Shown here in pieces: positions 2,729 through 58,810 of a DNA stretch of 64,000 nt. The notes beneath the pieces were generated by a model that was not told where the DNA came from, made no database searches, and was given only the letters and a program-made list of their open reading frames with translations. The translations under genes and the position numbers were made by a program. Each line of letters opens with the position of its first letter. The first letter of the stretch is position 1. This DNA comes from Roseovarius atlanticus (GTDB lineage: Bacteria; Pseudomonadota; Alphaproteobacteria; Rhodobacterales; Rhodobacteraceae). The DNA is taken from the NCBI RefSeq assembly GCF_001441615.1, contig NZ_LAXJ01000026.1, forward strand, positions 1 to 64,000, given 5' to 3'.

Positions 2729-3677
2729 TCAGCCGATACACGATATCGGTGATTATGTTGAAGGCGATCACCATGGCCGCCGAGACAAGGAACACACCGA
2801 GGAGTGTGTTGTAGTCCCGTGCGGTCAGGCTCTCGAACATGAGGCGACCGATGCCGGGCCATGCGAACACGGTCTCGGTCAGAACGGCACCGCCCACCAG
2901 TTGCCCCGCCTGAAGACCGGCCAGTGTGACGACGGGCAAGAGGGCATTGCGCAGTATGTGACGACGCCGGATTGTTCCCTCGCGCAGACCCTTGGCGCGG
3001 GCCGTCTTGACGAAATCCATCTGGCTGACTTCGAGAACCGAGGACCGGGTCATCCGCAGGTAAACTGCCATGAAGAACAGCCCCAGCGTCAGCGCCGGCA
3101 GGAAGAGGTGTTTCAGCCGGTCCAGCACAGCGGTCATGCCGGTGTATTCAGCGCCGACGGTTTCGTATCCGAAGGCCGGGAACCAGCCCAGATGCACCGA
3201 GAACAGCACGACGGCCATCAGCGCTACCCAGAAAAGCGGTGTGGCATAAAACAGCAATGCCATGGTGGTGATCGCAGTATCGCTCCATTTGCCCTGCCGT
3301 GCGGCGGCGGCAAGGCCGAACACGATCCCCAGAAGCAGGGACATGCCAAAGGCGGTCATCGTAAGTAACAGCGTCGCGGGCAACCGGTCCAGGATCAGGT
3401 CCAGCACGGGCATCTGTTGACGATAGGAGTAGCCGAGGTCCAGTTGCACGACGCCTGAGACGTAGTTCCAGAACTGTACATAAAGCGGCTGATCCAGCCC
3501 GAACTGACGGCGCAGTTGTTGGATGAATTGTTCGTCCGCGGCGCCTGCCTCGCCCGCCATGACCATGGCTGGGTCGCCTGGGGCGGCATGGATCAGGAAG
3601 AAATTCAGTACGACAACCAGCAAAAGCGTGATGACGGCTTTGGCGGTGCGGCCAAATATGGCGGCGGCAAGATTCAT
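2712..3677 (-). CDS. Peptide ABC importer permease (DppB type)
   Basis: The 321-residue product has a DppB-like N-terminal helix (residues about 10-30) and an extracytoplasmic segment with the family pattern DPAMVMAGEAGAADEQFIQQ. The remaining helices lead to an EAA loop near TARAKGLREGTIRRRHILRN. It is transcribed after the SBP gene, from which it is separated by 92 bases containing a perfect 9-bp stem-loop. With the DppC-type subunit it would form the transmembrane channel. Confidence 0.92.
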   Translation of the reverse strand: MNLAAAIFGRTAKAVITLLLVVVLNFFLIHAAPGDPAMVMAGEAGAADEQFIQQLRRQFGLDQPLYVQFWNYVSGVVQLDLGYSYRQQMPVLDLILDRLPATLLLTMTAFGMSLLLGIVFGLAAAARQGKWSDTAITTMALLFYATPLFWVALMAVVLFSVHLGWFPAFGYETVGAEYTGMTAVLDRLKHLFLPALTLGLFFMAVYLRMTRSSVLEVSQMDFVKTARAKGLREGTIRRRHILRNALLPVVTLAGLQAGQLVGGAVLTETVFAWPGIGRLMFESLTARDYNTLLGVFLVSAAMVIAFNIITDIVYRLIDPRI

Positions 3678-3724
3678 TGTCTGGGCCTGCTCGGTTCGCG
3701 ATTGGCGTCAGGGGCCGAATGGAG

Positions 3725-3750
3725 GCTGGCCCGGGTGATTTCGGGCCAGC
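3725..3750 (-). terminator. Intercistronic stem-loop between SBP and permease
   Basis: GCTGGCCCG at 3725-3733 pairs perfectly with CGGGCCAGC at 3742-3750 around an 8-base loop. It sits between the SBP stop (3770) and the permease start (3677), with no T-tract. It probably stabilises the SBP message or attenuates read-through, so that the SBP is made in excess of the permeases. Confidence 0.6.
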
Positions 3751-3769
3751 TCTGCATGCTTATCCGGAT

Positions 3770-5314
3770 TTATTGCTCGACCCACGCGTCGCGCAATCCG
3801 TCATTCACACCGATGGCGGTGGTCACGAGGTCCTGCACATCGCAGCGATAGATCGTTGGAAACTCGATCTCCAGCAGCCAGGCAACCGGCACGTCATCAA
3901 CAAGTTGCTTCTGCACCTTGGAATAGATTTCCTGGCGTTCTTCCGGGGTGGCTGCCGTGGCAGCCTCGGCGAACATCTCGTCCACCTCTGGGTTTTCATA
4001 GCCGGCGACGTTGTTCCAAGGGCTGCCCTTGGCGATGTTGGACGAAAGATAGCTGCGCGCGACACCCAAGGCCGGATCGCCGTACTGATAGAGGTAGGTG
4101 AAGGCGATATCGAAATCCCACTCGGCCTGTTTCTGGTTCCAGCCGGCGACGTCGGTCGCCACCACTTCGACGTTGACGCCCACCTCTTCAAGGTTCTGCT
4201 TCATCGCCTCGGCCCAGCGTTGCCATGTCTCGCCGTAGGGCAAAGGCAGGATGCGCACGGCTTCCCCGTCATAGCCTGCGGCCTCCAGATGCTCGCGTGC
4301 CTTGTCGGGGTTATGGTCGTACATGATCGTGTCGTCGGTGTAGAAATTCGTCTTGGACGACACCGGACTGGTGGCGACCGTACCGAACCCGTTCCAGATC
4401 ACATCCTTCACGAACTCGCGGTCCATGGCGTACATCACAGCTTTGCGGAAATCCTTGTTTGCCGTGGCCCCTTCGCGATTGTTCATCCACGCCATCGCAT
4501 GGGGCGCGAAATACTCCCACCCTTGGCCGGTGGAACAGACGCCTTCCATCTCGGTCAGGCGTTTCACGTCCCAGTTTTCGACAGAGCCACCGGGCAGCAC
4601 GTCGACCTCGCCATTCTCGAACGCTACCGCACGCGAGGCGGCGTCGGGAATGACGCGGTAGAACACCTCGTCCAGATAGGGCTGTCCGTCCAGGTAGTAA
4701 TCCTCGTTCTTCACGAGGTGGATATAGCTACCTTTCTCCCACTCATTGAACTTGTACGGGCCGGTACCAATCGGCGTGTTGTTCGCTTCGTTGTTGGCGA
4801 AATCTGTCCCCTCGTAGATATGCTTGGGGATCATCGGCATGGTTCCGGCCTCGAAGACGCCGATGAATGGGCCAAAAGGGTTCTTCAGCTTGAAGACGAC
4901 GGTGTGATCGTCCGGCGCGGTCACGGATTCAACGTGTTCCAAGCTGACCCGAAGTCGCGCATGGGTTTCACGCAGGAAGGTGTCGACCGAAAACACCACA
5001 TCCTCGGCAGTGAAAGGCTCTCCATCATGCCAAGTCACCCCGTCCTGAAGAGTGAAAGTGTAGGTTAGCGCATCGTCGGAAATCTCCCACGACTTGGCCA
5101 GCGACGGCATCGGGTTCAGGTCGGTGTCATAGCGCAGAAGGCTTTCGTAAATGTCGCCCGCAACCAGCTGCGTCGGTCCGTTTTGCACGAGACCCAGCAT
5201 CAGGCTGGGCGGTTCGGGTTGCACCACGATGTCAAGCCGGCCGCCAGTGTCTTGTGCCACTGTCGGCAGCGCAAGCCCGAGGTACAGAATTGAGGCTGTC
5301 AGTGTCTTTTTCAT
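3770..5314 (-). CDS. Peptide ABC importer periplasmic substrate-binding protein (SBP family 5)
   Basis: This 514-residue protein has a Sec signal peptide (Lys-rich start, hydrophobic core, AQD at about 20-22). It has typical SBP_bac_5 features: an N-terminal LAKSWEISDDALTYTFTLQD segment, a WHDGEPFTAEDVVFS segment, and NTPIGTGPYKFNEWEKGSY. It would capture the ligand in the periplasm and deliver it to the permeases encoded downstream. It is the first gene of the minus-strand operon. Ligand cannot be assigned from sequence alone; the family covers di- and oligopeptides, nickel chelates, opines and glutathione. Confidence 0.93.
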   Translation of the reverse strand: MKKTLTASILYLGLALPTVAQDTGGRLDIVVQPEPPSLMLGLVQNGPTQLVAGDIYESLLRYDTDLNPMPSLAKSWEISDDALTYTFTLQDGVTWHDGEPFTAEDVVFSVDTFLRETHARLRVSLEHVESVTAPDDHTVVFKLKNPFGPFIGVFEAGTMPMIPKHIYEGTDFANNEANNTPIGTGPYKFNEWEKGSYIHLVKNEDYYLDGQPYLDEVFYRVIPDAASRAVAFENGEVDVLPGGSVENWDVKRLTEMEGVCSTGQGWEYFAPHAMAWMNNREGATANKDFRKAVMYAMDREFVKDVIWNGFGTVATSPVSSKTNFYTDDTIMYDHNPDKAREHLEAAGYDGEAVRILPLPYGETWQRWAEAMKQNLEEVGVNVEVVATDVAGWNQKQAEWDFDIAFTYLYQYGDPALGVARSYLSSNIAKGSPWNNVAGYENPEVDEMFAEAATAATPEERQEIYSKVQKQLVDDVPVAWLLEIEFPTIYRCDVQDLVTTAIGVNDGLRDAWVEQ

Positions 5315-11012: not shown

Positions 11013-11049
11013 TGATATAAGATAACGTTGTTATGTTATATAGTATCAC
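11013..11049 (+). promoter_or_regulatory. Zur-like AT-rich operator/promoter region
   Basis: This very AT-rich stretch is an imperfect 36-bp dyad whose ends are TGATA (11013-11017) and TATCA (11044-11048). Inside it are ATAAC-GTT-GTTAT (11022-11034) and GTTATA-TAG-TATCAC (11035-11049). The second resembles enterobacterial Zur boxes such as GTTATAATATCAC but with a 3-base instead of a 1-base centre. It lies 214 bases upstream of the COG0523 gene that opens a zinc-related operon. Zur, the zinc-loaded repressor, is the likeliest binder. No zur gene is in the window. Confidence 0.5.
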
Positions 11050-11262: not shown

Positions 11263-12477
11263 ATGGAAAAAGCTAATGATTCACGTCTCCCCGTCACGGT
11301 GCTTTCCGGCTTTCTTGGCGCCGGAAAGACGACGCTCCTGAACCGCGTCCTGAACAACCGCGAAGGGCGACGTGTCGCCGTGATCGTCAACGACATGTCC
11401 GAGGTGAACATCGACGCTGACCTCGTGCGCGAAGGCGGCGCGAACCTCAGCCACACGGACGAGACGCTCGTGGAAATGAGCAACGGCTGTATCTGCTGCA
11501 CCCTACGCGACGACCTTCTGGACGAGGTCCGCAGGCTCGCCGGCGAAGGACGTTTCGACTATCTGCTGATCGAATCGACCGGCATTTCCGAGCCGCTGCC
11601 CGTGGCCGCCACCTTCGATTTCCGCGACGAGGCGGGCGACAGCCTGTCGGATGTCTCGCGTCTCGATACCATGGTCACGGTGGTCGACGCGGTGAACCTG
11701 CTCGAGGATTATTCCAGCCACGATTTCCTCAGCGACCGGGGCGAGACCTTGGGCGAGGCCGACGAGCGCACGCTGGTTCACCTGCTGACCGACCAGATCG
11801 AGTTCGCCGACGTGGTCGTCCTGAACAAGATCAGCGACGCGGGACCTGAGCGCACCGATGCGGCGCGCAAGATCATCCGCAGCCTGAACGCCGACGCCCG
11901 GATCATCGAGACAGATCATTCGGACGTTGCCGCGGACGCCATCCTCGACACTGGCCTTTTCGATTTCGAGAAGGCGCATGAGCACCCGATGTGGGCCAAG
12001 GAGCTTTACGGCTTTGCCGACCACGTGCCCGAAACCGAGGAGTACGGCGTTGCGTCCTTCGTCTATCGCGCGCGGCAGCCGTTCGAGCCGGAAAAGATCA
12101 TGGCGGTGCTGAACGGCAACCTGCCGGGCGTCATCCGGGCCAAGGGACATTTCTGGATTGCCACGCGGCCCGACTGGGTGGCGGAATATTCGCTGGCCGG
12201 GGCTCTGTCTTCGGTCACCCCTCTGGGCCAATGGTGGGCCACGGTGCCAAAGGAGCGGCATCCCGAACATGCCGGCGCGCAGGAGTACCTGCGGGCGCAC
12301 TGGCAAGAGCCGTGGGGCGACCGCCGGCAGGAAATCGTGTTCATCGGGGCAGGCATTGACTGGCCTGCGCTGAAGGCGCGGCTGGACGCGGCGCTCGTGC
12401 CCGAAAGCGCGGCGCTGGGACCCGACAGCCTGCCCCACCTGCCAGATCCGTTCCCGGCGTGGCGGAGGGCGTCATGA
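11263..12477 (+). CDS. COG0523/CobW-family metal GTPase (zinc metallochaperone type)
   Basis: I chose ATG 11263 because the domain begins at once: [16 protein letters not shown] with Walker A at residues 16-24; the longer frame from 11098 adds unrelated sequence. The 404-residue product has the hallmark metal-binding GCICC at 75-79, followed by TLRDDLL, a switch region [15 protein letters not shown] and a guanine-specificity-like [10 protein letters not shown]. The CobW C-terminal domain includes [14 protein letters not shown]. Known relatives (ZigA, ZNG1, YeiR) bind Zn and GTP and are made in zinc starvation. Its place downstream of a Zur-like site and before Zrg-like genes supports a zinc rather than cobalt or nickel role. 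Confidence 0.9.
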
Positions 12478-13106
12478 CCCTGCATCCGATTGTTCCAAAA
12501 GGGGCCGGGTCGGGCGTACTGAGCGTCAATGGCCCCGAGGACATGGGCGCGATCAGGCTGCCGGGTGTCGGTGGCGTGATCTGCCAGCGCAGGCTTCCCG
12601 AATACATGCTGGATTGGCTGGAGACCCTTCCTGCCGAAATGCTCCCCGCAGCCCGCGTCATCGTGCGACCGGGCGAGATTTACTCGGCCGTCACACTGGC
12701 GTGCGACGAGACGGGACTGAGCGACGCACCCGAGCGCCGGATCCTCATTGACGATATCGCGGGGCTGGCGGCCACCTTTGGCGAGATGACACGTGCCAAG
12801 TGGCTGCGCCTGCGGCTTGACGTGGTGATGACAAATGCCTGTCGCCGGTTCCACATCGACAGGGTCACGGCCCGTCTGGTCTGCACCTATCGCGGCACCG
12901 GCACGCAATACGGCGTGGCGCGAGATGATGCGCCGGACACAGTGCATACGGTGCCGACAGGATCGCCTTTCGTCATGCGCGGTACGCTCTGGCCGGCGCA
13001 ACCCGATCCGCACCTTCTGCACCGCTCTCCGCCGATAGAGGGCACGGGCGAAACCCGTCTGATGCTGGCGCTGGACCCGGTCACAGATCCGGATGCAGAG
13101 TCATGA
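12474..13106 (+). CDS. DUF1826 family protein, zinc-locus associated
   Basis: The start at 12474 overlaps the GTPase stop in an ATGA junction, giving 210 residues. The family signature is clear: [20 protein letters not shown] from residue 123, with Cys123, His127, Asp129 and Arg130, then GTQYGVAR. The middle holds [14 protein letters not shown]. The biochemical role of DUF1826 is not known to me. It is commonly a neighbour of COG0523 GTPases, and the conserved C-x3-H-x-D pattern could bind metal. It has no signal peptide, so it is probably cytoplasmic, and it may be a client or partner of the upstream GTPase. Confidence 0.85.
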
Positions 13107-13366
13107 GCCGCAACATCGCCACAAGCCTGCGCCGCCGCAGACGTAGCGACCCGATGCGTGATTTCGACGCCCTGCCGCCGCCGCTGCGCAACTGGATGAG
13201 ACAAGCGGCGCTGGCGTGGTCGCCCGCCTAGTGCCGCCGCATCTGGCAAAAGGCGCGGGCCGAGGGTGAGCCGCCCGACGCCATCCTGGCCCGGCTCGAC
13301 CGAGCGGAACGGATCACGCTTGCCCGCGACAGGCTGACCTGTCCGATCAGCACGATAGAGACATGA
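13103..13366 (+). pseudogene. DUF6525-like small gene interrupted by an in-frame TAG
   Basis: An ATG at 13103 overlaps the DUF1826 stop. The frame reads [20 protein letters not shown], then FDALPPPLRNWMRQAALAWS and PA, then TAG at 13229-13231 (codon 43). The same frame then continues in register with CRRIWQKARAEGEPPDAILA and ARLDRAERITLARD (overlapping residues quoted) to TGA at 13364. Together about 86 residues match a small arginine-rich Rhodobacteraceae family (DUF6525) whose members read through as WSP-x-x-x-RRIWQKA. A single nonsense change such as TCG to TAG explains the break. Alternatives are a sequencing error or a functional short peptide. Confidence 0.7.
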
Positions 13367-13388
13367 AAAGACGAAAGGACCGAAGACC

Positions 13389-14888
13389 ATGAAACGCACC
13401 CTGTCCCTGATCGCCGCGGCACTGCTTGCGGCGACAGCGCCCGCGCTGGCGGATGACACGCTCGATGTTGTGGCCCAGTTCGAGATCCAGTCACCGGAAC
13501 CCTCGACCTCGGGCTATATCTTCACCCGTATGGGCGTGACGGAAACGCTGACCAATGCCGACCCCGAGGGCCAGTTGACGCCCGGACTGGCGACCGACTG
13601 GTCCACGTCAGACGACGGCCTTACTTGGACTTTCACACTGCGGGACGGCGTGATGTTCCACGACGGCAGCGGGATGACGCCGGAGTCCGTGGTCAACGCG
13701 CTGAACATTGCCCAGGGCAAGCCCGGCCCGCTATCCTCGACGCCGGTCGAGTCAGTCGAGGCGGGCGACGGTGCGGTGATGTTCAAAATGTCGGAACCGT
13801 TCGCCGCGCTTCCGGCCTATCTTGCCCATTACAGCGCGCAGATCCTGGCGCCAAATGCCTACGGACCGGATGGCGCAGGTGTGCAGATCATCGGCACCGG
13901 CCCCTACAAGGTCACGGGCCTTGCCCCGCCGCTAAGCCTGAAGGCCGAGGCATTTGGCGACTATTGGGGCTCTGCGCCCAACGTGCCCAACGTCAGCTAT
14001 GCCGCTGTCAGCCGTGTCGAGACCCGCGCGCTGATGGCCGAATCCGGCGAGGCGGATTTTGTCTTCGGTCTGGACCCGGCCTCGGTCGCACGGCTGGAGG
14101 CGACGGATGCAACCACCGTCCATTCCGTCGCGATCCCGCGCACGCTGCTGATCAAGGTCAATGCCGGGCATCCTTTCCTGTCGGACCCCGAGGCGCGGCA
14201 GGCCCTGTCACTGGCGATTGACCGCGAGGGCATCGCCAAGGCCGTGCTACGCTACCCCGAAGGCGCCACGCAGTTGTTCCCGCCAGCGGTGGGAGAATGG
14301 CATGATGAGATGCTGGATCCGCTGGCCTATGATCCCGAAGCGGCCAAGGCACTGCTGGCCGATCTTGGCTGGGAAGCGGGCGGCGACGGCATCCTGACCC
14401 GTGACGGCGAACGGTTTGCCCTGACGCTCACCACCTATCCCGACCGGCCCGAATTGCCGCTGGTCGCCTCGGTGCTGGAACAGCAATTCCGGGCCGTCGG
14501 GGTGGAATTGAGCATCAACACCACCAATTCCAGCGAGATCAGTTCGGGGCACGCCGACGGCTCGCTCGATCTTAGCTTGATCGCGCGGAACTTCGGCCTG
14601 ATCCCCAACCCGGTGGGCACCGTGCTGTCGGATTATGCGCCAACCGGCGACTGGGGTGCGATGGGCTGGCAAAACGACGAGATCGTGGAAATTGCCCGTA
14701 GTGTCGGGCGCGGTGACGGTGGCGAGGATGCGCGCGCGCGGATCGCCGAGATCCTGCAAACCGAGCTGCCCATCATTCCGATCGCCTGGTACCGCCAGAC
14801 GCTCGCCGTCGCCGCCGGTGTCGAAGGCACCGTGATCGACCCGTGGGAGCGGACATTCGGATTGCAGGACCTGAAGCTGGCACAATGA
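13389..14888 (+). CDS. SBP family 5 periplasmic binding protein of the zinc locus (candidate metallophore receptor)
   Basis: A Sec signal peptide (residues 1-21, ending ALA) precedes a 499-residue peptide/nickel-type SBP. Family landmarks are LATDWSTSDDGLTWTFTLRD, VMFHDGSGMTPESVV and QIIGTGPYKVTGLAPP. It is preceded by GGACCGAAGACC, a reasonable ribosome-binding region. The downstream permease overlaps its stop by 4 bases, with no stem-loop in between, unlike the other importer operons in this window. Relatives such as NikA, CntA and Dpp proteins bind metal chelates, opine metallophores or peptides. The operon context argues for a zinc chelate, but that is inference. Confidence 0.88.
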   Translation: MKRTLSLIAAALLAATAPALADDTLDVVAQFEIQSPEPSTSGYIFTRMGVTETLTNADPEGQLTPGLATDWSTSDDGLTWTFTLRDGVMFHDGSGMTPESVVNALNIAQGKPGPLSSTPVESVEAGDGAVMFKMSEPFAALPAYLAHYSAQILAPNAYGPDGAGVQIIGTGPYKVTGLAPPLSLKAEAFGDYWGSAPNVPNVSYAAVSRVETRALMAESGEADFVFGLDPASVARLEATDATTVHSVAIPRTLLIKVNAGHPFLSDPEARQALSLAIDREGIAKAVLRYPEGATQLFPPAVGEWHDEMLDPLAYDPEAAKALLADLGWEAGGDGILTRDGERFALTLTTYPDRPELPLVASVLEQQFRAVGVELSINTTNSSEISSGHADGSLDLSLIARNFGLIPNPVGTVLSDYAPTGDWGAMGWQNDEIVEIARSVGRGDGGEDARARIAEILQTELPIIPIAWYRQTLAVAAGVEGTVIDPWERTFGLQDLKLAQ

Positions 14889-15814
14889 AGACACTGATTT
14901 CACGCGGCATTCAGGCGGTGATGGTGGCGGTCCTGATCGGGTCTGCCACATTCGCCATGATGCGCAGCCTGCCGGGAGATGCGGCCTATCGCATCGCCGC
15001 CGGGCGCTATGGATACGACAATGTCAACACCGCCGCCGCCGACGCGGTGCGCGAAGAACTGGCGCTGGGCGGCCCTGCGCTGCCCGCCTTCCTGAGCTGG
15101 CTGGGCGACCTCGCGCGGCTGGATTTCGGCACCTCGCTGGTGACCGGCAATCCCGTCATCGCCGAAATCGGCCACCAGTTGGGGGCCAGCCTCGCGCTGG
15201 CGGCGGTGGCGGTTCTGCTGTCACTTCTGATCGGTCCGCCGCTGGGCATACTGGCGGGCCTGCGCCCGGGCGGAGTGCTGGACCGTGCCCTGCTGATCGT
15301 CTCGACGGGGCTGAAGGCGGCGCCGCAATTCCTGATGGCGCTGATCCTGATCCTGGTCCTGTCGGTCCAACTGAAACTGCTGCCCGCAGCGGGCCACGGC
15401 GAGGCACGCCACTTCATCCTGCCCGCGCTGGCGCTGGCGCTGGGCCTTGCCGCCGTGAACGCGCGCATCGCACGGGACGCGATGGCAAGGGTGGGTGCCA
15501 TGCCCTATTACGCCTTCGCCCGGTGGAAAGGCCTCAGCCGGCGACAGACCCTGATGCGCCACGGGCTGCGCAACGTGTCGGTGCCGCTGCTGACCTATCT
15601 CGGCCTGCAATTCGTGACCCTGGTCGAGGGTGTCGTGGTGGTCGAGGCGGTGTTCGGATGGCCCGGGATCGGCCATGCGCTGGTGCACGCGATCTTTTCG
15701 CGGGACGTGCCGATGGTGCAGGGCACGGCGTTGGTTCTGGGCCTCAGCTTCGTCGTGATCAACGCGGTCATCGACCTTGTCACGCAACGGATCGATCCAC
15801 GGAGGGCGGCATGA
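14885..15814 (+). CDS. Peptide/nickel-type ABC permease (DppB/NikB type), zinc locus
   Basis: ATG 14885 overlaps the SBP stop (ATGA), giving 309 residues. The N-terminal helix (about 8-28) is followed by the family SLPGDAAYRIAAGRYG region. Later come helices with LSLLIGPPLGILAGLRPGG and the EAA loop ARWKGLSRRQTLMRHGLRN. VVEAVFGWPGIGHALVHAI is the conserved C-terminal motif of NikB/DppB permeases. It would form the importer channel with the next gene product. Confidence 0.92.
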   Translation: MKTLISRGIQAVMVAVLIGSATFAMMRSLPGDAAYRIAAGRYGYDNVNTAAADAVREELALGGPALPAFLSWLGDLARLDFGTSLVTGNPVIAEIGHQLGASLALAAVAVLLSLLIGPPLGILAGLRPGGVLDRALLIVSTGLKAAPQFLMALILILVLSVQLKLLPAAGHGEARHFILPALALALGLAAVNARIARDAMARVGAMPYYAFARWKGLSRRQTLMRHGLRNVSVPLLTYLGLQFVTLVEGVVVVEAVFGWPGIGHALVHAIFSRDVPMVQGTALVLGLSFVVINAVIDLVTQRIDPRRAA

Positions 15815-16623
15815 GTGATGCTGTAGTTGTCCCGCGTCCCGCGGGGCGTGCCGTGCGCCTTGCCGGCGCGACGCTGGTGGCGGCGGTGCTCGCTTTTGCC
15901 CTGATCGGCCCGTTAATCGTGCCGGGTGACCCTTTCGCGCAATCGCTGATGCAGGCGCTGGGCGCGGCCGACGCCACCGCGCCCTTGGGCTATGACCACC
16001 TTGGACGGTCGATCTTTCACCGGCTGGCCCATGCCCTGCGCCTGTCGCCCGTCATCGCCGTCGCTGCGGTCCTGACCGCAGGTGCTGCCGGGCTGGTTCT
16101 GGGCACATTGGCGGCGGCGCGGGGTGGCTGGGTCGACCGGATCCTGACAATCCTGGCCGACGCGCTTTTGGCCTTGCCGGGGCTTCTGCTGGTGCTGATC
16201 GTGCTGGCGATCGTACCGGGTACGGCGCTGGGGTTCTGGGCCGGGCTGTCGCTGGTCTTGTGGATCGAGTTCTTCCGCCTGACGCGGGCCGCCACGCGCG
16301 ACACGCTGGCCTCGCCCGCTGTCGAGGCGTCGCGCCTGCTGGGGTTCGGCCCGGTCTATGTCTTCCGCACGCATATCTGGCCCGAGATCGCGCCGATGAT
16401 GCTGACCGCCGCCGCCTTTGGCACGGCCACGGCGATCATGGCCATCGCGGCGCTGGGCTTCGTGCATGTGGGGATGCGCGCGCCGACGGCAGAACTGGGC
16501 CTGATGATGGTCGAGCTTCTGCCCTATTGGCGCGAGGCGCCGCTGGCGCTGCTGTCGCCGGTGGTGGCGACCTTCGTGCTGCTGCTTGGACTGACACTAT
16601 TGGCCGGGAGCCGTGAGACATGA
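15811..16623 (+). CDS. Peptide/nickel-type ABC permease (DppC/NikC type), zinc locus
   Basis: The start overlaps the previous stop by 4 bases. The 270-residue protein has the NikC/DppC pattern: an N-terminal helix, LGYDHLGRSIFHRLAHALRL (the conserved G-x-D-x-x-G-R-D/S region), then TLAAARGGWVDRILTILADA and an EAA loop ASRLLGFGPVYVFRTHIWPE. Five to six hydrophobic helices are visible. It pairs with the upstream permease. Confidence 0.92.
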   Translation: MSDAVVVPRPAGRAVRLAGATLVAAVLAFALIGPLIVPGDPFAQSLMQALGAADATAPLGYDHLGRSIFHRLAHALRLSPVIAVAAVLTAGAAGLVLGTLAAARGGWVDRILTILADALLALPGLLLVLIVLAIVPGTALGFWAGLSLVLWIEFFRLTRAATRDTLASPAVEASRLLGFGPVYVFRTHIWPEIAPMMLTAAAFGTATAIMAIAALGFVHVGMRAPTAELGLMMVELLPYWREAPLALLSPVVATFVLLLGLTLLAGSRET

Positions 16624-18062
16624 CCCTGCTGCGTGCCGAGAACATCACCGTCTCCGAAGGCGACACCCCGATCCTGCACCCGGTGTCCCTGCATCTCGAC
16701 CCCGGCGAGCCGCTGGTCGTGCTGGGCGAGACGGGTTCGGGCAAGAGCCTGCTTGCACAGGCCATCATGGGCACCTTGCCCAAGGACCTTTCGCCGAAAG
16801 GGCGCGTGGTTCTGGGCGACCGGTTGCTCGATGCCGCGCGGCCTGCGGGTTTTCGCCCGCTCTGGGGGCGCGAGATCGCGGTCCTGCCGCAGGAACCGTG
16901 GCTGTCGCTCGACCCGCTGATGAGGGCGGGCGCGCAGGTAAGCGAGGCGCACCGGCTGGTGCGCGGGCTGGGCGCCGCCGAGGCACGCGCGCAGGCGCAA
17001 GAGGATCTTGCGCGGCTGGGCCTGAGCGGTGCCGAAGACCGGTATCCGCATCAGCTGTCGGGCGGCATGGCACAGCGCGTCGCCATCGCGGCGGCGCGGG
17101 CGGGCGGTGCGCGCATCGTCATCGCCGACGAGCCGACCAAGGGACTGGACGCCGCGCGCCGTGACGAGGTGGCCGACCTGCTGCTTGCGGAACTGGCGCA
17201 CGGCGGGGGGCTGTTGGTCATCACTCACGACCTTGCGCTGGCGCGACGGATCGGCGGACGGATCATCATCCTGCGCGAGGGGAAGGTGGTGGAGGCCGGC
17301 GTGACGCGGTCCGTCATGGCCGCCCCGGCCAAGGAGTACAGCCGCGAACTGATAGCCGCCGATCCCGAGACCTGGGCCGTCCGGCGCAAGCCGCCCGCCT
17401 TTGCCGCCGTGCTGACCGCGACCGGCCTCGCGGCAGAGAGGGGTGGTAACCAGCTTTTCTCTGACATCTCCTTCGATCTCAGCGAGGGGCGCATTCTTGG
17501 GGTCACCGGCCCCTCGGGCTGTGGCAAGTCCACGCTGGGCGATGTGGTTCTGGGGCTTGTGCGGCCCGCCGCCGGGCGGGTGGAACGGGCTCCGGGCCTG
17601 CCGCCGACCGCGTTCCAGAAGCTTTACCAGGATCCGGTCGCCGCCTTTCCGCGGCACCGGACGCTGGGGCGCACTTTGGCCGATGTCGCCCGCCATCACG
17701 GGCAAACGCAATGCCAGATCGACGCGCTGATGCCGCGCCTCGGACTCGCGCCGGTATTGCTGAGCCGCAAGCCGGGCGCAGTATCCGGCGGCGAGCTTCA
17801 GCGTCTCGCGCTTCTGCGCCTGCTGCTTGTCCGCCCTAAATTCATCTTCGCCGACGAGCCCACGTCGCGCCTCGATCCGATTACACAGAAGCAGGTGATC
17901 GGCCTGCTGACCGAAACCGCCGAGGGCGAGGGATGCGCGATCATGCTGGTCAGCCACGACGCGGCATTGGTCGGCGCAACAGTGGATCATGTCCTGTCGC
18001 TGGCCGCGCCGCAAAAGCACACGGAATTGAACGCCCCGATCGTCGCAGGGGCGTTGCAATGA
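16620..18062 (+). CDS. Fused double ATPase of the zinc-locus peptide/nickel-type importer
   Basis: This 480-residue protein overlaps the permease by 4 bases. Domain 1: Walker A GETGSGKS 36-43, signature LSGGM 146-150, Walker B RIVIADE 165-171, with H-loop ITHD at 201-204. Domain 2: Walker A GPSGCGKS 297-304, signature VSGGE 388-392, Walker B FIFADE 408-413. It corresponds to NikD plus NikE in one chain. Domain 2 carries a short, divergent linker before Walker A. It should energise the SBP/permease set encoded just upstream. Confidence 0.92.
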   Translation: MTLLRAENITVSEGDTPILHPVSLHLDPGEPLVVLGETGSGKSLLAQAIMGTLPKDLSPKGRVVLGDRLLDAARPAGFRPLWGREIAVLPQEPWLSLDPLMRAGAQVSEAHRLVRGLGAAEARAQAQEDLARLGLSGAEDRYPHQLSGGMAQRVAIAAARAGGARIVIADEPTKGLDAARRDEVADLLLAELAHGGGLLVITHDLALARRIGGRIIILREGKVVEAGVTRSVMAAPAKEYSRELIAADPETWAVRRKPPAFAAVLTATGLAAERGGNQLFSDISFDLSEGRILGVTGPSGCGKSTLGDVVLGLVRPAAGRVERAPGLPPTAFQKLYQDPVAAFPRHRTLGRTLADVARHHGQTQCQIDALMPRLGLAPVLLSRKPGAVSGGELQRLALLRLLLVRPKFIFADEPTSRLDPITQKQVIGLLTETAEGEGCAIMLVSHDAALVGATVDHVLSLAAPQKHTELNAPIVAGALQ

Positions 18063-18103
18063 CCCTCGTCTGACTTCATCAATGAAACCTGAAAGGACCT
18101 GTC

Positions 18104-18706
18104 ATGAAACCGATTTATCTGGCCCTGGCCACCACGACCCTCGCCACGCCCGCACTGGCGCAGGACACGCGTGAACTGGACGCGCATGTGCACGGCGTCT
18201 CCACCGTCGAGATCGCGGTCGAACACGGGGCGATCGAGATCAACATCCTGTCCCCGGGCATGGACATCGTCGGCTTTGAGCATGAGGCGAGTTCTGCCGA
18301 GGACAAGGAGGCAGTAGCTGCGGCGATCCGGCAATTTCTGACTCCGGAAGAGATCGTATCCTTGCCCGAGGGCGCGGGGTGCCGCCTGACCGAGGTTCTG
18401 GCTCATTTGCACACCGGCGATCATGACGACGAGCACATGCACGAGGGTGATGACCACACGCACGACGACGACCACGCCGAAGGCGAAGAGCACGATCACG
18501 AAGACCACGCGGACGAGGCGCGGCATAGCGAATTTCATGTGACTTACGGCTTTGCCTGCGATGACGAGGACGCGCTGACCGGTGTGGGCTTCCCGTTTTT
18601 CGAACAGTTCCCCAATGCCGAGGAGATCGAGGTGCAATACGTGACCGAGACCGGCGCTGGCACGGCGGAACTGACGCCAGACGCCGCCAAAGTCTCGTTC
18701 GAGTAG
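18104..18706 (+). CDS. zrgA: His-rich periplasmic DUF2796 protein (ZrgA-like zinc-binding protein)
   Basis: The 200-residue product has a Sec signal peptide (1-20, LAQ at the end) followed by AHVHGVSTVEIAVEHGAIEI, the start of DUF2796, and PGMDIVGFEHEASSAEDKEA. Residues 101-145 form an intrinsically charged loop with about 15 histidines mixed with Asp/Glu, a typical zinc-capture segment. The C-terminal part (FHVTYGFACDDEDALTGVGF) closes the domain. Vibrio cholerae ZrgA is the known counterpart. A GAAAGGACC ribosome-binding site precedes the start. It is the first of five genes in the same order as I recall for ZrgABCDE. Confidence 0.85.
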   Translation: MKPIYLALATTTLATPALAQDTRELDAHVHGVSTVEIAVEHGAIEINILSPGMDIVGFEHEASSAEDKEAVAAAIRQFLTPEEIVSLPEGAGCRLTEVLAHLHTGDHDDEHMHEGDDHTHDDDHAEGEEHDHEDHADEARHSEFHVTYGFACDDEDALTGVGFPFFEQFPNAEEIEVQYVTETGAGTAELTPDAAKVSFE

Positions 18707-18708
18707 CG

Positions 18709-19398
18709 ATGGCGAATCCGGCCCTGACCCTGCAAGACGTCCGATTCCGCTGGCCGGGGCGGGCATCTTTCGGGATTTCGGTGCCGGAGTTCCGGCTGGA
18801 CCGCGGGGAAAGCGTTCTTCTGCTGGGCGAAAGCGGGTCGGGCAAGTCCACGCTCTTGTCGCTGGTCTGCGGGATCGTCACCGCCGATGCCGGACGCGTG
18901 GATCTGGCCGGCACCGACCTTGCCACCCTGCGGGCCGGCGCGCGCGACAGGTTCCGGGCCGAGCGGATCGGAGTCATCTTCCAGCAGTTCAACCTGCTGC
19001 CCTATGCCAGCGTGTCGGACAATATCCTGCTGCCTCTGAAGTTCGCGCCGGAGCGGCGCAAGCGATCCGAGGCAGGCGATGCGGCAAAGCTTTGCGCGGC
19101 GCTTGGACTGTCTTCGGATATTGTCGAGGCCAAGGCCGGGCGCCTTTCCGTTGGTCAGCAACAGCGGGTCGCCGTGGCACGCGCCCTGATCGGGCAGCCG
19201 CCCCTGATCGTCGCGGATGAGCCGACCTCGGCACTGGATGCGGCGGCGCAGGATGCGTTTTTGGGCCTGTTGTTCGACCAGATCGCGGCAGCCGGATCGT
19301 CGCTGTTGATGGTCAGCCATGACGAACGGCTGGGCGCGCGGTTCGACCGGGTGGTGCGGCTCGCTGACATCGCCTCTGTCGAAAGGCAGGCTGCATGA
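18709..19398 (+). CDS. LolD/MacB-like ABC ATPase (Zrg-type zinc system)
   Basis: This is a 229-residue ATPase with Walker A GESGSGKS at 40-47, Q-loop GVIFQQFNLLPYASV and Walker B LIVADE at 166-171. The signature is LSVGQ at 146-150, with Val in place of the second Gly, as seen in some LolD-type proteins. It starts 2 bases after the DUF2796 stop and overlaps the permease by 4 bases. It probably drives the membrane partner to move or release zinc, or to handle the periplasmic proteins, rather than energising a classical importer. Confidence 0.88.
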   Translation: MANPALTLQDVRFRWPGRASFGISVPEFRLDRGESVLLLGESGSGKSTLLSLVCGIVTADAGRVDLAGTDLATLRAGARDRFRAERIGVIFQQFNLLPYASVSDNILLPLKFAPERRKRSEAGDAAKLCAALGLSSDIVEAKAGRLSVGQQQRVAVARALIGQPPLIVADEPTSALDAAAQDAFLGLLFDQIAAAGSSLLMVSHDERLGARFDRVVRLADIASVERQAA

Positions 19399-20645
19399 TC
19401 CTCCGCCTCGCTTTCGGCTCTTTGCTGGCGCGCGCCCTGACCGTCAGCATGACGGTGCTGGCCATCGCCCTGTCGGTCGCGCTATTCCTTGGCGTCGAGA
19501 AGGTGCGCACGGGTGCCAAGGCCAGTTTCGCCGACACGATCTCTGGCACCGACCTGATCGTCGGGCCGCGTTCGGGCTCGGTTCAGCTGTTGCTCTATTC
19601 AGTGTTCCGGATCGGCAACGCCACCAACAACGTGACCTGGCAAAGTTATCAGGATATCGCCAACCGGCCCGAGGTGGACTGGATCGTCCCCATATCGCTG
19701 GGCGACAGCCACCGCCAGTTCCGGGTCATGGGCACCACGCAGGCGTTTTTCGAACATTACAAATATCGCGGCGGAAGGTCACTGGAGATCGGGGATGGCC
19801 ACGGGCTGAACGACCTTTACGATGCCGTCATCGGCGCCGAGGTCGCGGCCACGCTGGACTATGCGGTGGGCGCCCCGATCGTCGTGTCGCATGGCCTGGC
19901 CTCGTTCACCCACCACGACGATCAGCCCTTTCGCGTGGCCGGCATCGTCGACCGCACCGGCACCCCGGTGGACCGGACCGTTATCGTCAGCCTGGAGGCC
20001 ATCGAGGCGATCCATGTCGATTGGCAATCCGGCGCGCAGATCCCCGGCCAAAGCACGCCGGTCGAGCAGATACGTCAGATGGATCTGTCGCCGTCGGCAG
20101 TGACAGCCGCGCTGGTCGGGGTCAAGTCGCGGCTGCAGATCTTCGGCCTGCAACGCTGGATCAACACCTACCCGGAAGAGCCGCTGTTGGCGGTCCTGCC
20201 CGGTGTCGCCTTGCAGGAGCTTTGGCAGATCGTCGGCGTGGCCGAAACCGCGCTGATCGGCGTCTCGGCGATGGTTGTGGTGACGGCCCTTTTGGGCATG
20301 ATGGCAATGATCTTTTCCTCGCTCAACGAACGCCGGCGGGAAATGGCGATCTGGCGGGCCATGGGTGCGCGCCCGTCTACCATCCTTGGCCTGCTGGTGC
20401 TGGAAGCGGCGCTGATGGCCGCCTTGGGCGCACTACTGGGCCTCGCACTCCTCTACACCGGGCTGGCGTTGGCGCAGCCGGTGGTGGACAGCGCCTTCGG
20501 CCTCTGGCTGCCGATCGCGCCGCCGACCGGGCGGGAACTGGCCACTCTGGCAGGTGTGATCGGCGCGGCGGCACTTGTCAGCCTGTTTCCGGCCCTCAGG
20601 GCCTACCGCCTGTCGCTGTCCGATGGCATGATGGTGAGGATATGA
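19395..20645 (+). CDS. MacB/FtsX-like ABC permease (Zrg-type zinc system)
   Basis: The 416-residue protein has one N-terminal helix (about 8-30), a large periplasmic MacB-PCD-like domain (roughly 35-280) and three C-terminal helices. The FtsX-like loop includes SLNERRREMAIWRAMGARPS, a hallmark of the family. It overlaps the ATPase upstream and the DUF3299 gene downstream (ATGA at 20642). This topology belongs to mechanotransmission-type ABC proteins, so direct zinc permeation is not obvious from sequence. Confidence 0.88.
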   Translation: MILRLAFGSLLARALTVSMTVLAIALSVALFLGVEKVRTGAKASFADTISGTDLIVGPRSGSVQLLLYSVFRIGNATNNVTWQSYQDIANRPEVDWIVPISLGDSHRQFRVMGTTQAFFEHYKYRGGRSLEIGDGHGLNDLYDAVIGAEVAATLDYAVGAPIVVSHGLASFTHHDDQPFRVAGIVDRTGTPVDRTVIVSLEAIEAIHVDWQSGAQIPGQSTPVEQIRQMDLSPSAVTAALVGVKSRLQIFGLQRWINTYPEEPLLAVLPGVALQELWQIVGVAETALIGVSAMVVVTALLGMMAMIFSSLNERRREMAIWRAMGARPSTILGLLVLEAALMAALGALLGLALLYTGLALAQPVVDSAFGLWLPIAPPTGRELATLAGVIGAAALVSLFPALRAYRLSLSDGMMVRI

Positions 20646-21154
20646 CACGCACGCATCCCTCTCGCCGGGCCGTTTTGGCCATGCTTTCGGCAACCCTGCT
20701 TCCAGGCCAGGCCATGGCCAGCCCGTTCCGCGTGATTGAATGGCCGGACCTGATCCCCAAGGGCGTGCCCTATGGCGAGATCATCGGCCCCGGCAAGATC
20801 GACGAGGCCAATGACACCTGGGTGCCCGAATACGACCGCAACGCGTGGCGGATGAACACCCGGCTGAACGGCAAGGCGGTCAAGCTGCCCGGGTACATCA
20901 TCCCGTTCGACGTCACTGCGCAAGGTGTGACCAGCTTCATGCTAGTGCCTTACGTGGGCGCCTGCATCCACACGCCCCCGCCACCCCCAAACCAGCTTGT
21001 CTTCGTCACCGCCAAGACCCCCTGGCCAAGCGACTCTTTGTGGGACCCGGTCTGGGTATCGGGGCGTCTGTCAGCCAAATCCATGCAGACGCAGATCGCC
21101 GATGTCGGGTACCAGATGACCGCCGAGCGGATCGAGGTCTACGAATGGCAGTGA
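20642..21154 (+). CDS. DUF3299 secreted protein, copy 1 (Zrg-type zinc system)
   Basis: This 170-residue protein has a signal peptide with RRAVLAMLSATLLPGQAMA (about 8-26). The mature part shows DUF3299 features: WPDLIPKGVPYGEI, KLPGYIIPFDVTAQGVTSFM and LVPYVGACIHTPPPPPNQLV, where one Cys and one His lie beside a proline run. It overlaps the permease stop. The role is unknown; the conserved CIH next to prolines could be a metal site. Confidence 0.85.
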   Translation: MTRTHPSRRAVLAMLSATLLPGQAMASPFRVIEWPDLIPKGVPYGEIIGPGKIDEANDTWVPEYDRNAWRMNTRLNGKAVKLPGYIIPFDVTAQGVTSFMLVPYVGACIHTPPPPPNQLVFVTAKTPWPSDSLWDPVWVSGRLSAKSMQTQIADVGYQMTAERIEVYEWQ

Positions 21155-21651
21155 AAGGCCCGACACGTCGTGCCCTGTTTCTGTCCATCGCGGCGTTTGG
21201 AATTGCCGGACAGGCGCTGGCCGACACGGTGATCGTGCTGGATTGGCGCGACCTTCTGCCCAAGGACGACACGTCTTTGCCCGGCAACCTGCAAGGCATC
21301 CTGCCGCATGACGAAAGCAGCATGGCCGCGCGTCAGCCGCCATCGACGGGCATCCGCACCGACTGGACCGGCAAAATCGTCCAACTTTCGGGCTTTATCG
21401 TGCCGCTCGACCACGACGGCACCGGCGTCACCGCGTTCATTCTGGTGCCCTATGTCGGTGCCTGCGTCCACGTGCCCCCACCGCCGGCGAACCAGCTTGT
21501 CTTCGTGACCACCGGCACGCCCTATGAAAGCTCCGGCATGTTCGAGCCCGTGACGGTCACCGGCATGTTCGGCACGGCCTCGAGATCAACCCAACTGGCC
21601 GAGATCGGCTATGCCCTTTCGGCGGAAGACATCCGGAGCTTTAGGCAGTGA
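21145..21651 (+). CDS. DUF3299 secreted protein, copy 2 (Zrg-type zinc system)
   Basis: ATG 21145 lies 10 bases inside the previous gene. The 168-residue product has a signal peptide (RRALFLSIAAFGIAGQALA) and the same fold markers as copy 1: WRDLLPKDD, VQLSGFIVPLDHDGTGVTAF and LVPYVGACVHVPPPPANQLV. The region after the first motif differs strongly, suggesting specialised rather than redundant copies. It ends the eleven-gene locus. Confidence 0.85.
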   Translation: MAVKGPTRRALFLSIAAFGIAGQALADTVIVLDWRDLLPKDDTSLPGNLQGILPHDESSMAARQPPSTGIRTDWTGKIVQLSGFIVPLDHDGTGVTAFILVPYVGACVHVPPPPANQLVFVTTGTPYESSGMFEPVTVTGMFGTASRSTQLAEIGYALSAEDIRSFRQ

Positions 21652-58735: not shown

Positions 58736-58765
58736 CAGACGCCTCGCGTATCAAAAATGAAAGTG

Positions 58766-58791
58766 GCCCGCGCATGATACCACGCGCGGGC
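58766..58791 (-). terminator. Stem-loop between second-importer SBP and permease
   Basis: GCCCGCGC (58766-58773) pairs with GCGCGGGC (58784-58791) around a 10-base loop. On the minus strand it is followed by a T-rich stretch (CACTTTCATTTTTGA), the best intrinsic-terminator character of the SBP-linked hairpins here. Partial termination would favour SBP over permease. Confidence 0.62.
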
Positions 58792-58810
58792 GTTTGGTTC
58801 AGCCGGGGCC

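What the first reader, a model, noticed from the sequence alone, without database searches (positions are those of the whole stretch)
13389..18062. Candidate zinc-metallophore importer inside the zinc locus
The SBP, two permeases and fused ATPase follow CobW/DUF1826 genes and precede Zrg-like genes with overlapping starts and no SBP-specific hairpin, unlike the other importers in this window. SBP family 5 includes metal-chelate binders. Expression locked to zinc genes and absence of the hairpin suggest a metal role rather than bulk nutrient uptake.
Basis: inference. Interest (0 to 1): 0.65.

Follow-up and report, generated by a model that had tools for sequence, protein, structure and literature searches.

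The report
Zinc-starvation importer of unknown zinc complex
A four-gene uptake pump sits in a block of zinc-starvation genes behind a likely zinc-repressor switch, and most relatives of the pump that were examined carry the same kind of switch, so it very probably brings in zinc bound to some small molecule that has not been identified.

Summary
A family-5 solute-binding protein, two permeases and a fused double ATPase (13389-18062) lie between CobW/DUF1826 genes and ZrgA-E, overlapping by 4 nt each. Two Zur-type boxes precede cobW (11014-11026, 11035-11047) and are the two best matches in the 64-kb window. Relatives support a zinc role: a Zur-type box lies within 400 bp of the operon start in 33 of 48 loci (window included) against 5 of 305 control gene starts, also where no zinc gene was found beside the importer (A. 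vitis, Rhizobium, Sinorhizobium, Azospirillum, Aureimonas, Pantoea dispersa). Two Cupriavidus copies and 13 other loci show none at that distance. The system is not wholly new: Paracoccus denitrificans pden1338-1344 has the same plan, is 8.6-16-fold induced without zinc and carries Zur motifs, specificity left open (PMC5387054). The substrate remains unknown. An opine-dehydrogenase model gave no hit (control silent) and nicotianamine synthase was not found; two distant relatives hold an EamA (metabolite-exporter type) gene inside the operon. Best reading: a Zur-repressed cluster C importer for a zinc chelate. 'Metallophore' is not proven.

The parts
11014..11026 (+). Zur-type box 1 (GATATAAGATAAC)
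   Evidence: matrix from P. denitrificans Zur sites, score 12.0, second best position of the 64-kb window; same place conserved in 6 aligned relatives
11035..11047 (+). Zur-type box 2 (GTTATATAGTATC)
   Evidence: score 13.5, best position of the window; 100 first-order Markov copies of the 380-bp upstream region reach at most 11.6; footprint; 215 bp before cobW
11263..12477 (+). COG0523/CobW GTPase, ZigA-like
   Evidence: Pfam cobW 4.4e-53; NCBIfam ZigA 585.5 bits, cut-off 600, so just below
12474..13106 (+). DUF1826 protein
   Evidence: Pfam 6.7e-48
13103..13366 (+). DUF6525-like small ORF with an in-frame stop at codon 43
   Evidence: translation; same place as the DUF6525 gene of Pseudosulfitobacter (Pfam 1.6e-29 for that gene)
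13389..14888 (+). substrate-binding protein, cluster C / SBP_bac_5, signal peptide by eye
   Evidence: Pfam 2.5e-72; nearest solved chains by sequence are nickel/metallophore SBPs
14885..15814 (+). ABC permease 1
   Evidence: Pfam BPD_transp_1 8.6e-35; 4-nt overlap with the SBP stop
15811..16623 (+). ABC permease 2
   Evidence: Pfam BPD_transp_1 7.7e-19; 4-nt overlap
16620..18062 (+). fused ATPase with two nucleotide-binding domains
   Evidence: Pfam ABC_tran, two stretches; two Walker A, signature and Walker B motifs read by eye in the translation
18104..18706 (+). ZrgA zinc-uptake protein
   Evidence: Pfam 3e-50; NCBIfam 194.5 bits over the cut-off of 185
18709..19398 (+). Zrg ATPase (ZrgB-like)
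   Evidence: Pfam ABC_tran 9.3e-31
19395..20645 (+). Zrg permease (ZrgC-like)
   Evidence: Pfam FtsX, MacB_PCD
20642..21154 (+). DUF3299 protein (ZrgD-like)
   Evidence: Pfam 3.1e-39
21145..21651 (+). second DUF3299-like protein (ZrgE-like)
   Evidence: the preceding protein matches the corresponding second gene in L036 (43%) and L038 (47%); itself not scanned with Pfam

Best explanation
The four genes encode a cluster C (Opp/Nik-type) ABC importer that Zur keeps silent while zinc is plentiful and that is made together with the CobW zinc chaperone and the ZrgA-E uptake system when zinc runs short. The binding protein most probably captures zinc already bound to a small, acid-rich ligand (a chelate: perhaps a foreign or unknown metallophore, or a zinc-histidine/citrate-type complex); the two permeases and fused ATPase move the complex into the cytoplasm. 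Supported here by sequence comparison: gene content, Zur-type boxes, wide conservation of the link. Reported by others for a P. denitrificans operon of the same plan: induction without zinc and Zur motifs at its promoters. Inferred: that the cargo is a zinc complex, and its identity.
For: Zinc genes on both sides in one tightly packed block. Pair of Zur-type boxes upstream, conserved as a footprint in the window and six relatives; the same matrix finds two boxes (15.8, 15.7) between znuA and zur of the own genome. A Zur-type box of score 12 or more within 400 bp of the operon start in 33 of 48 loci (window included) against 5 of 305 control starts, p about 1e-29; the same 33 of 48 and 5 of 305 when the matrix is trained only on the three sites that are not of the P. 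denitrificans counterpart operon. Two further loci (L036, L037) have strong boxes before an extra first gene. Box before the SBP where no match to CobW, DUF1826, Zrg, ZnuA or Zur was found in the stretch fetched: A. vitis, Azospirillum, Aureimonas, R. leguminosarum (7 kb each side), S. fredii, Pantoea dispersa, Pantoea sp. X85 (4 kb each side). One relative has znuC-zur / znuA, importer and ZrgA-E as one block (L082); Paracoccus aestuarii has it before a znu-type operon. P. denitrificans pden1338-1344: 8.6-16-fold up in zinc-depleted medium, Zur motifs at pden1338 and pden1341 (PMC5387054). Best-matching solved SBPs are NikA/CntA types. Cluster C SBPs bind metal chelates (PMC5666155 passage). 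Peptide-anchoring Asp408 of DppA has no counterpart in 44 of 44 aligned family members; Arg400 is present in 44 of 44 and Arg353 in 41 of 44.
Against: No ligand is known. The boxes of the window itself are weaker than those of most relatives and lie 215 bp before cobW, farther than the 2-50 bp of the P. denitrificans sites. 15 of 48 loci show no box >= 11 at that distance: L031, L036, L037, L054, L069, L070, L072, L077, L079, L080, L089, L090, L092, L114, L115; of these L036 and L037 have one further upstream, L069 and L089 reach 10.8, L077 had 349 bp and L092 none before the contig end, L090 has an interrupted SBP. Both Cupriavidus copies (L114, L115) lack it. NikA ligand residues are mostly not kept, and lack of the DppA Asp is shared by the four own-genome paralogs that were aligned and by NikA, so it does not single out this family. 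Opine genes were not found. The AlphaFold model was too poor to use (pLDDT 58).
Confidence: 0.62

Rival explanations
1. The importer belongs to the zinc-starvation response but carries cobalt or nickel chelates, so that another metal can stand in for zinc.
For: Best curated family hits are nickel importers (NCBIfam Opp5A_nikA 206.6 bits, NikA 150.7); the S. aureus Cnt system was first read as a Co/Ni importer expressed in zinc-limited medium (PMC5666155 passage); zinc-starved Cupriavidus can replace some zinc with cobalt, not with nickel (PMC11340326, start of abstract).
Against: All curated cut-offs are missed (600, 393). NikA ligand residues are mostly not kept. Neighbours are zinc proteins; nickel or cobalt enzymes were not looked for.
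Confidence: 0.17
2. The importer takes up a nutrient (peptide, amino acid or other organic compound) that helps zinc-starved cells, for instance as an intracellular zinc ligand, with no metal on the cargo.
For: SBP_bac_5 proteins carry peptides, opines and other organic cargo as well (solved relatives listed); the one 36%-identical Agrobacterium locus tested lies beside a MurR/RpiR regulator and lacks a Zur-type box.
Against: The DppA peptide anchor is missing (shared by paralogs); I saw no metabolic neighbour common to the relatives, while the Zur-type box is in most of them.
Confidence: 0.15
3. The importer recovers a metallophore that the cell itself makes and exports.
For: Two distant relatives (L077, L078) hold an EamA gene between SBP and permease; an EamA protein exports pseudopaline in P. 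aeruginosa and EamA genes are common in zincophore clusters (PMC5719457, PMC7438024 passages).
Against: No EamA gene in the window operon; PF10100 in 0 of 19 genomes and records (control silent) and PF03059 in 0 of 1; no biosynthesis gene recognised at the locus.
Confidence: 0.1

Closest known systems
Paracoccus denitrificans pden1338-1344 (Neupane 2017, PMC5387054)
   Same: COG0523 gene, two hypothetical genes, cluster C SBP, two permeases, one ATPase gene; Zur motifs; specificity unassigned
   Different: described as a seven-gene operon, without ZrgA-E; Zur motif also at the SBP gene there, none seen at the SBP gene here. The P. denitrificans proteins themselves were not compared; a P. aestuarii copy (57%) was.
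CntABCDF (Opp1) of Staphylococcus aureus
   Same: Opp/Nik-type ABC importer used under zinc shortage
   Different: gene names imply two ATPases, opine synthesis genes alongside, staphylopine cargo (PMC5666155); the SBP here scores 123.9 against the CntA cut-off of 800
NikABCDE of E. coli and Opp5A nickel SBP
   Same: same SBP family, nearest curated SBP models
   Different: below the cut-offs, most ligand residues of E. coli NikA not kept, two ATPase genes in E. coli, zinc rather than nickel neighbours
ZnuABC and AztABCD
   Same: Zur-controlled zinc uptake
   Different: cluster A-I SBPs that bind the metal ion directly (PMC5387054); a different SBP family
ZrgABCDE of Vibrio cholerae
   Same: ZrgA-E-like genes lie directly downstream in the same block
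   Different: a separate uptake system with an FtsX/MacB-type permease, not the importer asked about

Membership tests
Cluster C (SBP family 5) ABC importer | SBP_bac_5 protein, two BPD_transp_1 permeases, ABC ATPase(s) | tested here: met
Zur regulon | Zur box at the promoter | tested here: met
   scores 13.5 and 12.0, weaker than in most relatives; binding itself not tested
Zur regulon | derepression in zinc shortage or in a zur mutant | not testable with these tools
   zinc depletion induces the P. denitrificans operon of the same plan (PMC5387054)
NikA / Opp5A nickel SBP | score over the curated model cut-off | tested here: not met
   206.6 of 600 and 150.7 of 393 bits
NikA nickel SBP | ligand residues R97, R137, W100, Y402, H416 (recalled) | tested here: not met
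   window has P, S, S, P, T; the R137 position is R in 12 of 44 aligned family members
CntA staphylopine SBP | score over the curated cut-off | tested here: not met
   123.9 of 800 bits
Opine zincophore cluster | opine dehydrogenase (PF10100) in the genome | tested here: inconclusive
   0 of 19 genomes and records, control silent in 14 of 14
Opine zincophore cluster | nicotianamine synthase-like gene (PF03059) | tested here: inconclusive
   0 of 1 own genome, control rings in 1 of 14; bacterial CntL may be too distant for the model
Dipeptide SBP (DppA) | Asp408 anchor for the peptide amino end (recalled) | tested here: not met
   no counterpart in 44 of 44 aligned family members, also absent in 4 of 4 aligned own paralogs
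Metallophore importer | binding of a metal-ligand complex | not testable with these tools
   needs protein and ligands

The most novel reading that the evidence does not exclude
A broad, so far unnamed family of Zur-controlled cluster C importers (alpha- and gammaproteobacteria) that feeds on zinc complexes without the known opine biosynthesis genes: either piracy of foreign zincophores or a zincophore of unknown chemistry, exported in some lineages by an EamA protein encoded in the same operon.
Probability: 0.33. Interest if true: 0.72.

Novelty: new member of a known kind. Interest (0 to 1): 0.45.

Why it matters
Bacterial zinc uptake is usually told as direct-ion import by ZnuABC-type pumps; a chelate route is established for opine zincophores. 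A Zur-linked importer family found in many genera, without recognised opine genes, would mean that uptake of zinc complexes is wider, and gives a defined protein with which to fish for the unknown ligand, notably in marine Roseobacters.

Tried and rejected
AlphaFold2 of the SBP with 10 sequences gave pLDDT 58 and pTM 0.45: not used for pocket or fold search. Reading the window boxes alone as proof of Zur control was rejected: in the whole genome the loose pattern (2 mismatches) has 14 hits against 12 for the reversed control; the weight matrix, the footprint and the relatives carry the claim. Absence of a hairpin as evidence for a metal role: true observation, weak argument. Nickel importer by name (NCBIfam best hit): rejected on cut-offs and residues. 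Ten neighbouring genes of relatives as substrate clues: mixed families, no common partner. Papers: PMC5387054 section 16 whole, section 19 second part, and passages; passages only of PMC12183173, PMC4176598, PMC2770081, PMC7438024, PMC6103462, PMC5719457, PMC5666155; PMC10957091 searched for six terms, no occurrence; PMC11340326 start of abstract in a search listing. That no later test of the Pden_1341 specificity was seen rests in an open-licence library only.

Rows dropped before counts: L030 (same as L037) and L045 (same species as L040) as duplicates, L044 (fragmentary), L043 (Corynebacterium, 30%); L055-L068 and L073-L076 were replaced by longer stretches of the same places, or left out where covered by them. 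Of seven other own-genome SBP loci held, four gave a match and were scored; three (L004, L007, L008) gave none. The operon start was set by a script that walks through cobW/DUF1826 matches. Tree labels were set by hand.
Full report
What is there. The window lies on contig 19 of a 4.58-Mb genome. From 11263 to 21651 twelve ORFs on the plus strand form one compact block: a CobW/COG0523 GTPase, DUF1826, a DUF6525-like ORF with an in-frame stop, then SBP, permease, permease and fused ATPase, then ZrgA, an ATPase, an FtsX-type permease and two DUF3299-type proteins. The importer genes overlap by 4 nt each.

The switch. A weight matrix made from the five P. denitrificans Zur sites of PMC5387054 has its two highest scores in the whole 64-kb window just upstream of this block, 13.5 at 11035-11047 and 12.0 at 11014-11026; the next best is 11.0. 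The same matrix finds two boxes of 15.8 and 15.7 between znuA and zur of the own genome. The pair of boxes is a footprint: in an alignment of the window and relatives from six named genera the invariant columns gather in the two boxes. The window copies are weaker than most. A loose pattern search over the whole genome is not informative by itself (14 hits, 12 for the reversed control). The sharp form GTTATNNNATAAC has 25 sites in 15 genomes against 9 for the reversed control; flanking genes that I scanned include ZnuA, ZrgA and two COG0523 genes, which supports reading it as a Zur box. Its two sites in the own genome are elsewhere and the genes there were not identified.

The relatives. Close relatives of the binding protein are rare: E <= 1e-70 in 12 of 394 genomes of the family and 7 of 385 of the class, own genome included. 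Named ones include Roseovarius (92%), Pseudooceanicola, Arenibacterium, Primorskyibacter, Sulfitobacter, Pseudosulfitobacter and Natronohydrobacter; plasmid copies include Paracoccus aestuarii, Agrobacterium vitis, Azospirillum, Aureimonas, Pantoea, Rhizobium, Sinorhizobium and Cupriavidus. The neighbourhood varies: CobW before the importer in many, ZrgA-E after it in the window, L036, L038 and L082, a znu-type operon after it in P. aestuarii, znuC-zur / znuA directly before it in L082, a divergent CobW in P. ananatis and L071, and no match to CobW, DUF1826, Zrg, ZnuA or Zur in the stretches of A. vitis, Azospirillum, Aureimonas, R. leguminosarum, S. fredii, Pantoea dispersa and Pantoea sp. 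X85 (7 kb each side for the first four, 4 kb for the rest).

The test. If the zinc link were only an accident of neighbourhood, copies without zinc neighbours should lack the switch. These seven have it, with boxes of 17.5 to 19.7 before the binding-protein gene. Over 48 loci, the window among them, 33 have a box of 12 or more within 400 bp of the operon start against 5 of 305 control gene starts from the same loci; training on only the three sites from other operons gives the same 33 of 48 and 5 of 305. The first round was 30 of 43 against 4 of 300. Loci share ancestry, so the p-values overstate independence. The misses are told in the evidence-against field: two of them (L036, L037) have boxes over 19 further upstream, before an added oxidoreductase gene; both Cupriavidus copies have none. 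Four paralogs of the own genome and the one 36%-identical Agrobacterium locus tested have none of 12 or more. In the tree the 41 other relatives fall in two groups (6 and 35 rows) that meet the Agrobacterium locus at an open fork; 32 of the 41 were labelled Zur-linked, 2 weak, 4 unresolved and 3 without a box. Deep forks are weakly supported and long outgroup branches warn against reading the root.

What it carries. By sequence the best-matching solved proteins are nickel and nickel/metallophore binding proteins (3t66, 4oer, 5yh5, with E. coli NikA close behind). The curated NikA, Opp5A and CntA cut-offs are missed. Aligned with E. coli NikA and DppA (fetched), most NikA ligand residues are not kept, the DppA peptide anchor has no counterpart, and two arginines (353 and 400) are nearly or fully invariant. 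This suits an acid-rich ligand such as a metal-carboxylate complex, but the residue roles are recalled, the alignment is distant and paralogs share part of the pattern. A usable structure model was not obtained. Opine dehydrogenase was not found in 19 genomes and records, but the control for that model was silent.

A pointer to a metallophore. In two distant relatives (L077, L078) an EamA-family gene sits between the binding protein and the first permease. Of 44 loci measured, only these and L093 (547 bp, an ORF with no Pfam hit) leave more than 120 bp there. An EamA protein exports pseudopaline in P. aeruginosa, and such genes are typical of many opine zincophore clusters (PMC5719457, PMC7438024). 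This is suggestive for those lineages and says nothing direct about the window.

What is known. PMC5387054 reports for P. denitrificans a seven-gene operon with COG0523, two hypothetical genes and a cluster C SBP, two permeases and an ATPase, 8.6 to 16-fold up in zinc-depleted medium, with Zur motifs at its first gene and at the SBP gene, and says that the specificity has not been assigned and that metal binding by the pden1341 protein would be of interest. The window system is of that kind. A 2018 review of Zur regulons lists for P. denitrificans only znuABC, aztABC and yciC in the passage seen (PMC6103462). What this work adds is the conservation of the switch across families, also without zinc neighbours, the joint block with ZrgA-E and Znu, the EamA-bearing variants and the residue comparison.

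Verdict. Zur control: very likely. Zinc-complex import: more likely than not. Metallophore in the strict sense: open.

Noticed in passing
window 13103-13366: DUF6525-like small gene between DUF1826 and the SBP has an in-frame stop at codon 43; intact copies exist in the Roseovarius and Pseudosulfitobacter relatives.
   Followed up: partly
L082 5119-15882: znuC-zur, znuA, the importer and ZrgA-E lie in one block with three clusters of Zur-type boxes.
   Followed up: partly
L077 5242-6171 and L078 3823-4737: EamA-family gene inserted between SBP and first permease of the importer operon.
   Followed up: partly
L109 394-1431; L108 660-1439; L042 14919-17859: Zur-type boxes near a Peripla_BP_2 binding protein (L109) and an ABC ATPase gene (L108), and a Peripla_BP_2 gene and an ABC ATPase gene after the importer in L042: chelate-type importers of another class may also be zinc controlled.
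   Followed up: no
L036 7586-8503 and L037 7527-8444: A Pyr_redox_2 oxidoreductase gene stands between the Zur-type boxes and cobW (only L036 was scanned).
   Followed up: no
   Followed up: no
L051 5497-6666: Pantoea ananatis plasmid: a CobW gene (59%), missing from the gene table, lies divergent from the importer with a strong Zur-type box between.
   Followed up: no
window 58736-58810 and 3650-3770: Hairpins after the two other family-5 SBP genes on the minus strand, possibly stabilising or attenuating the message.
   Followed up: partly
plasmids collection: The importer SBP is plasmid-borne in 45 Pseudosulfitobacter records; those listed are about 80 kb.
   Followed up: no
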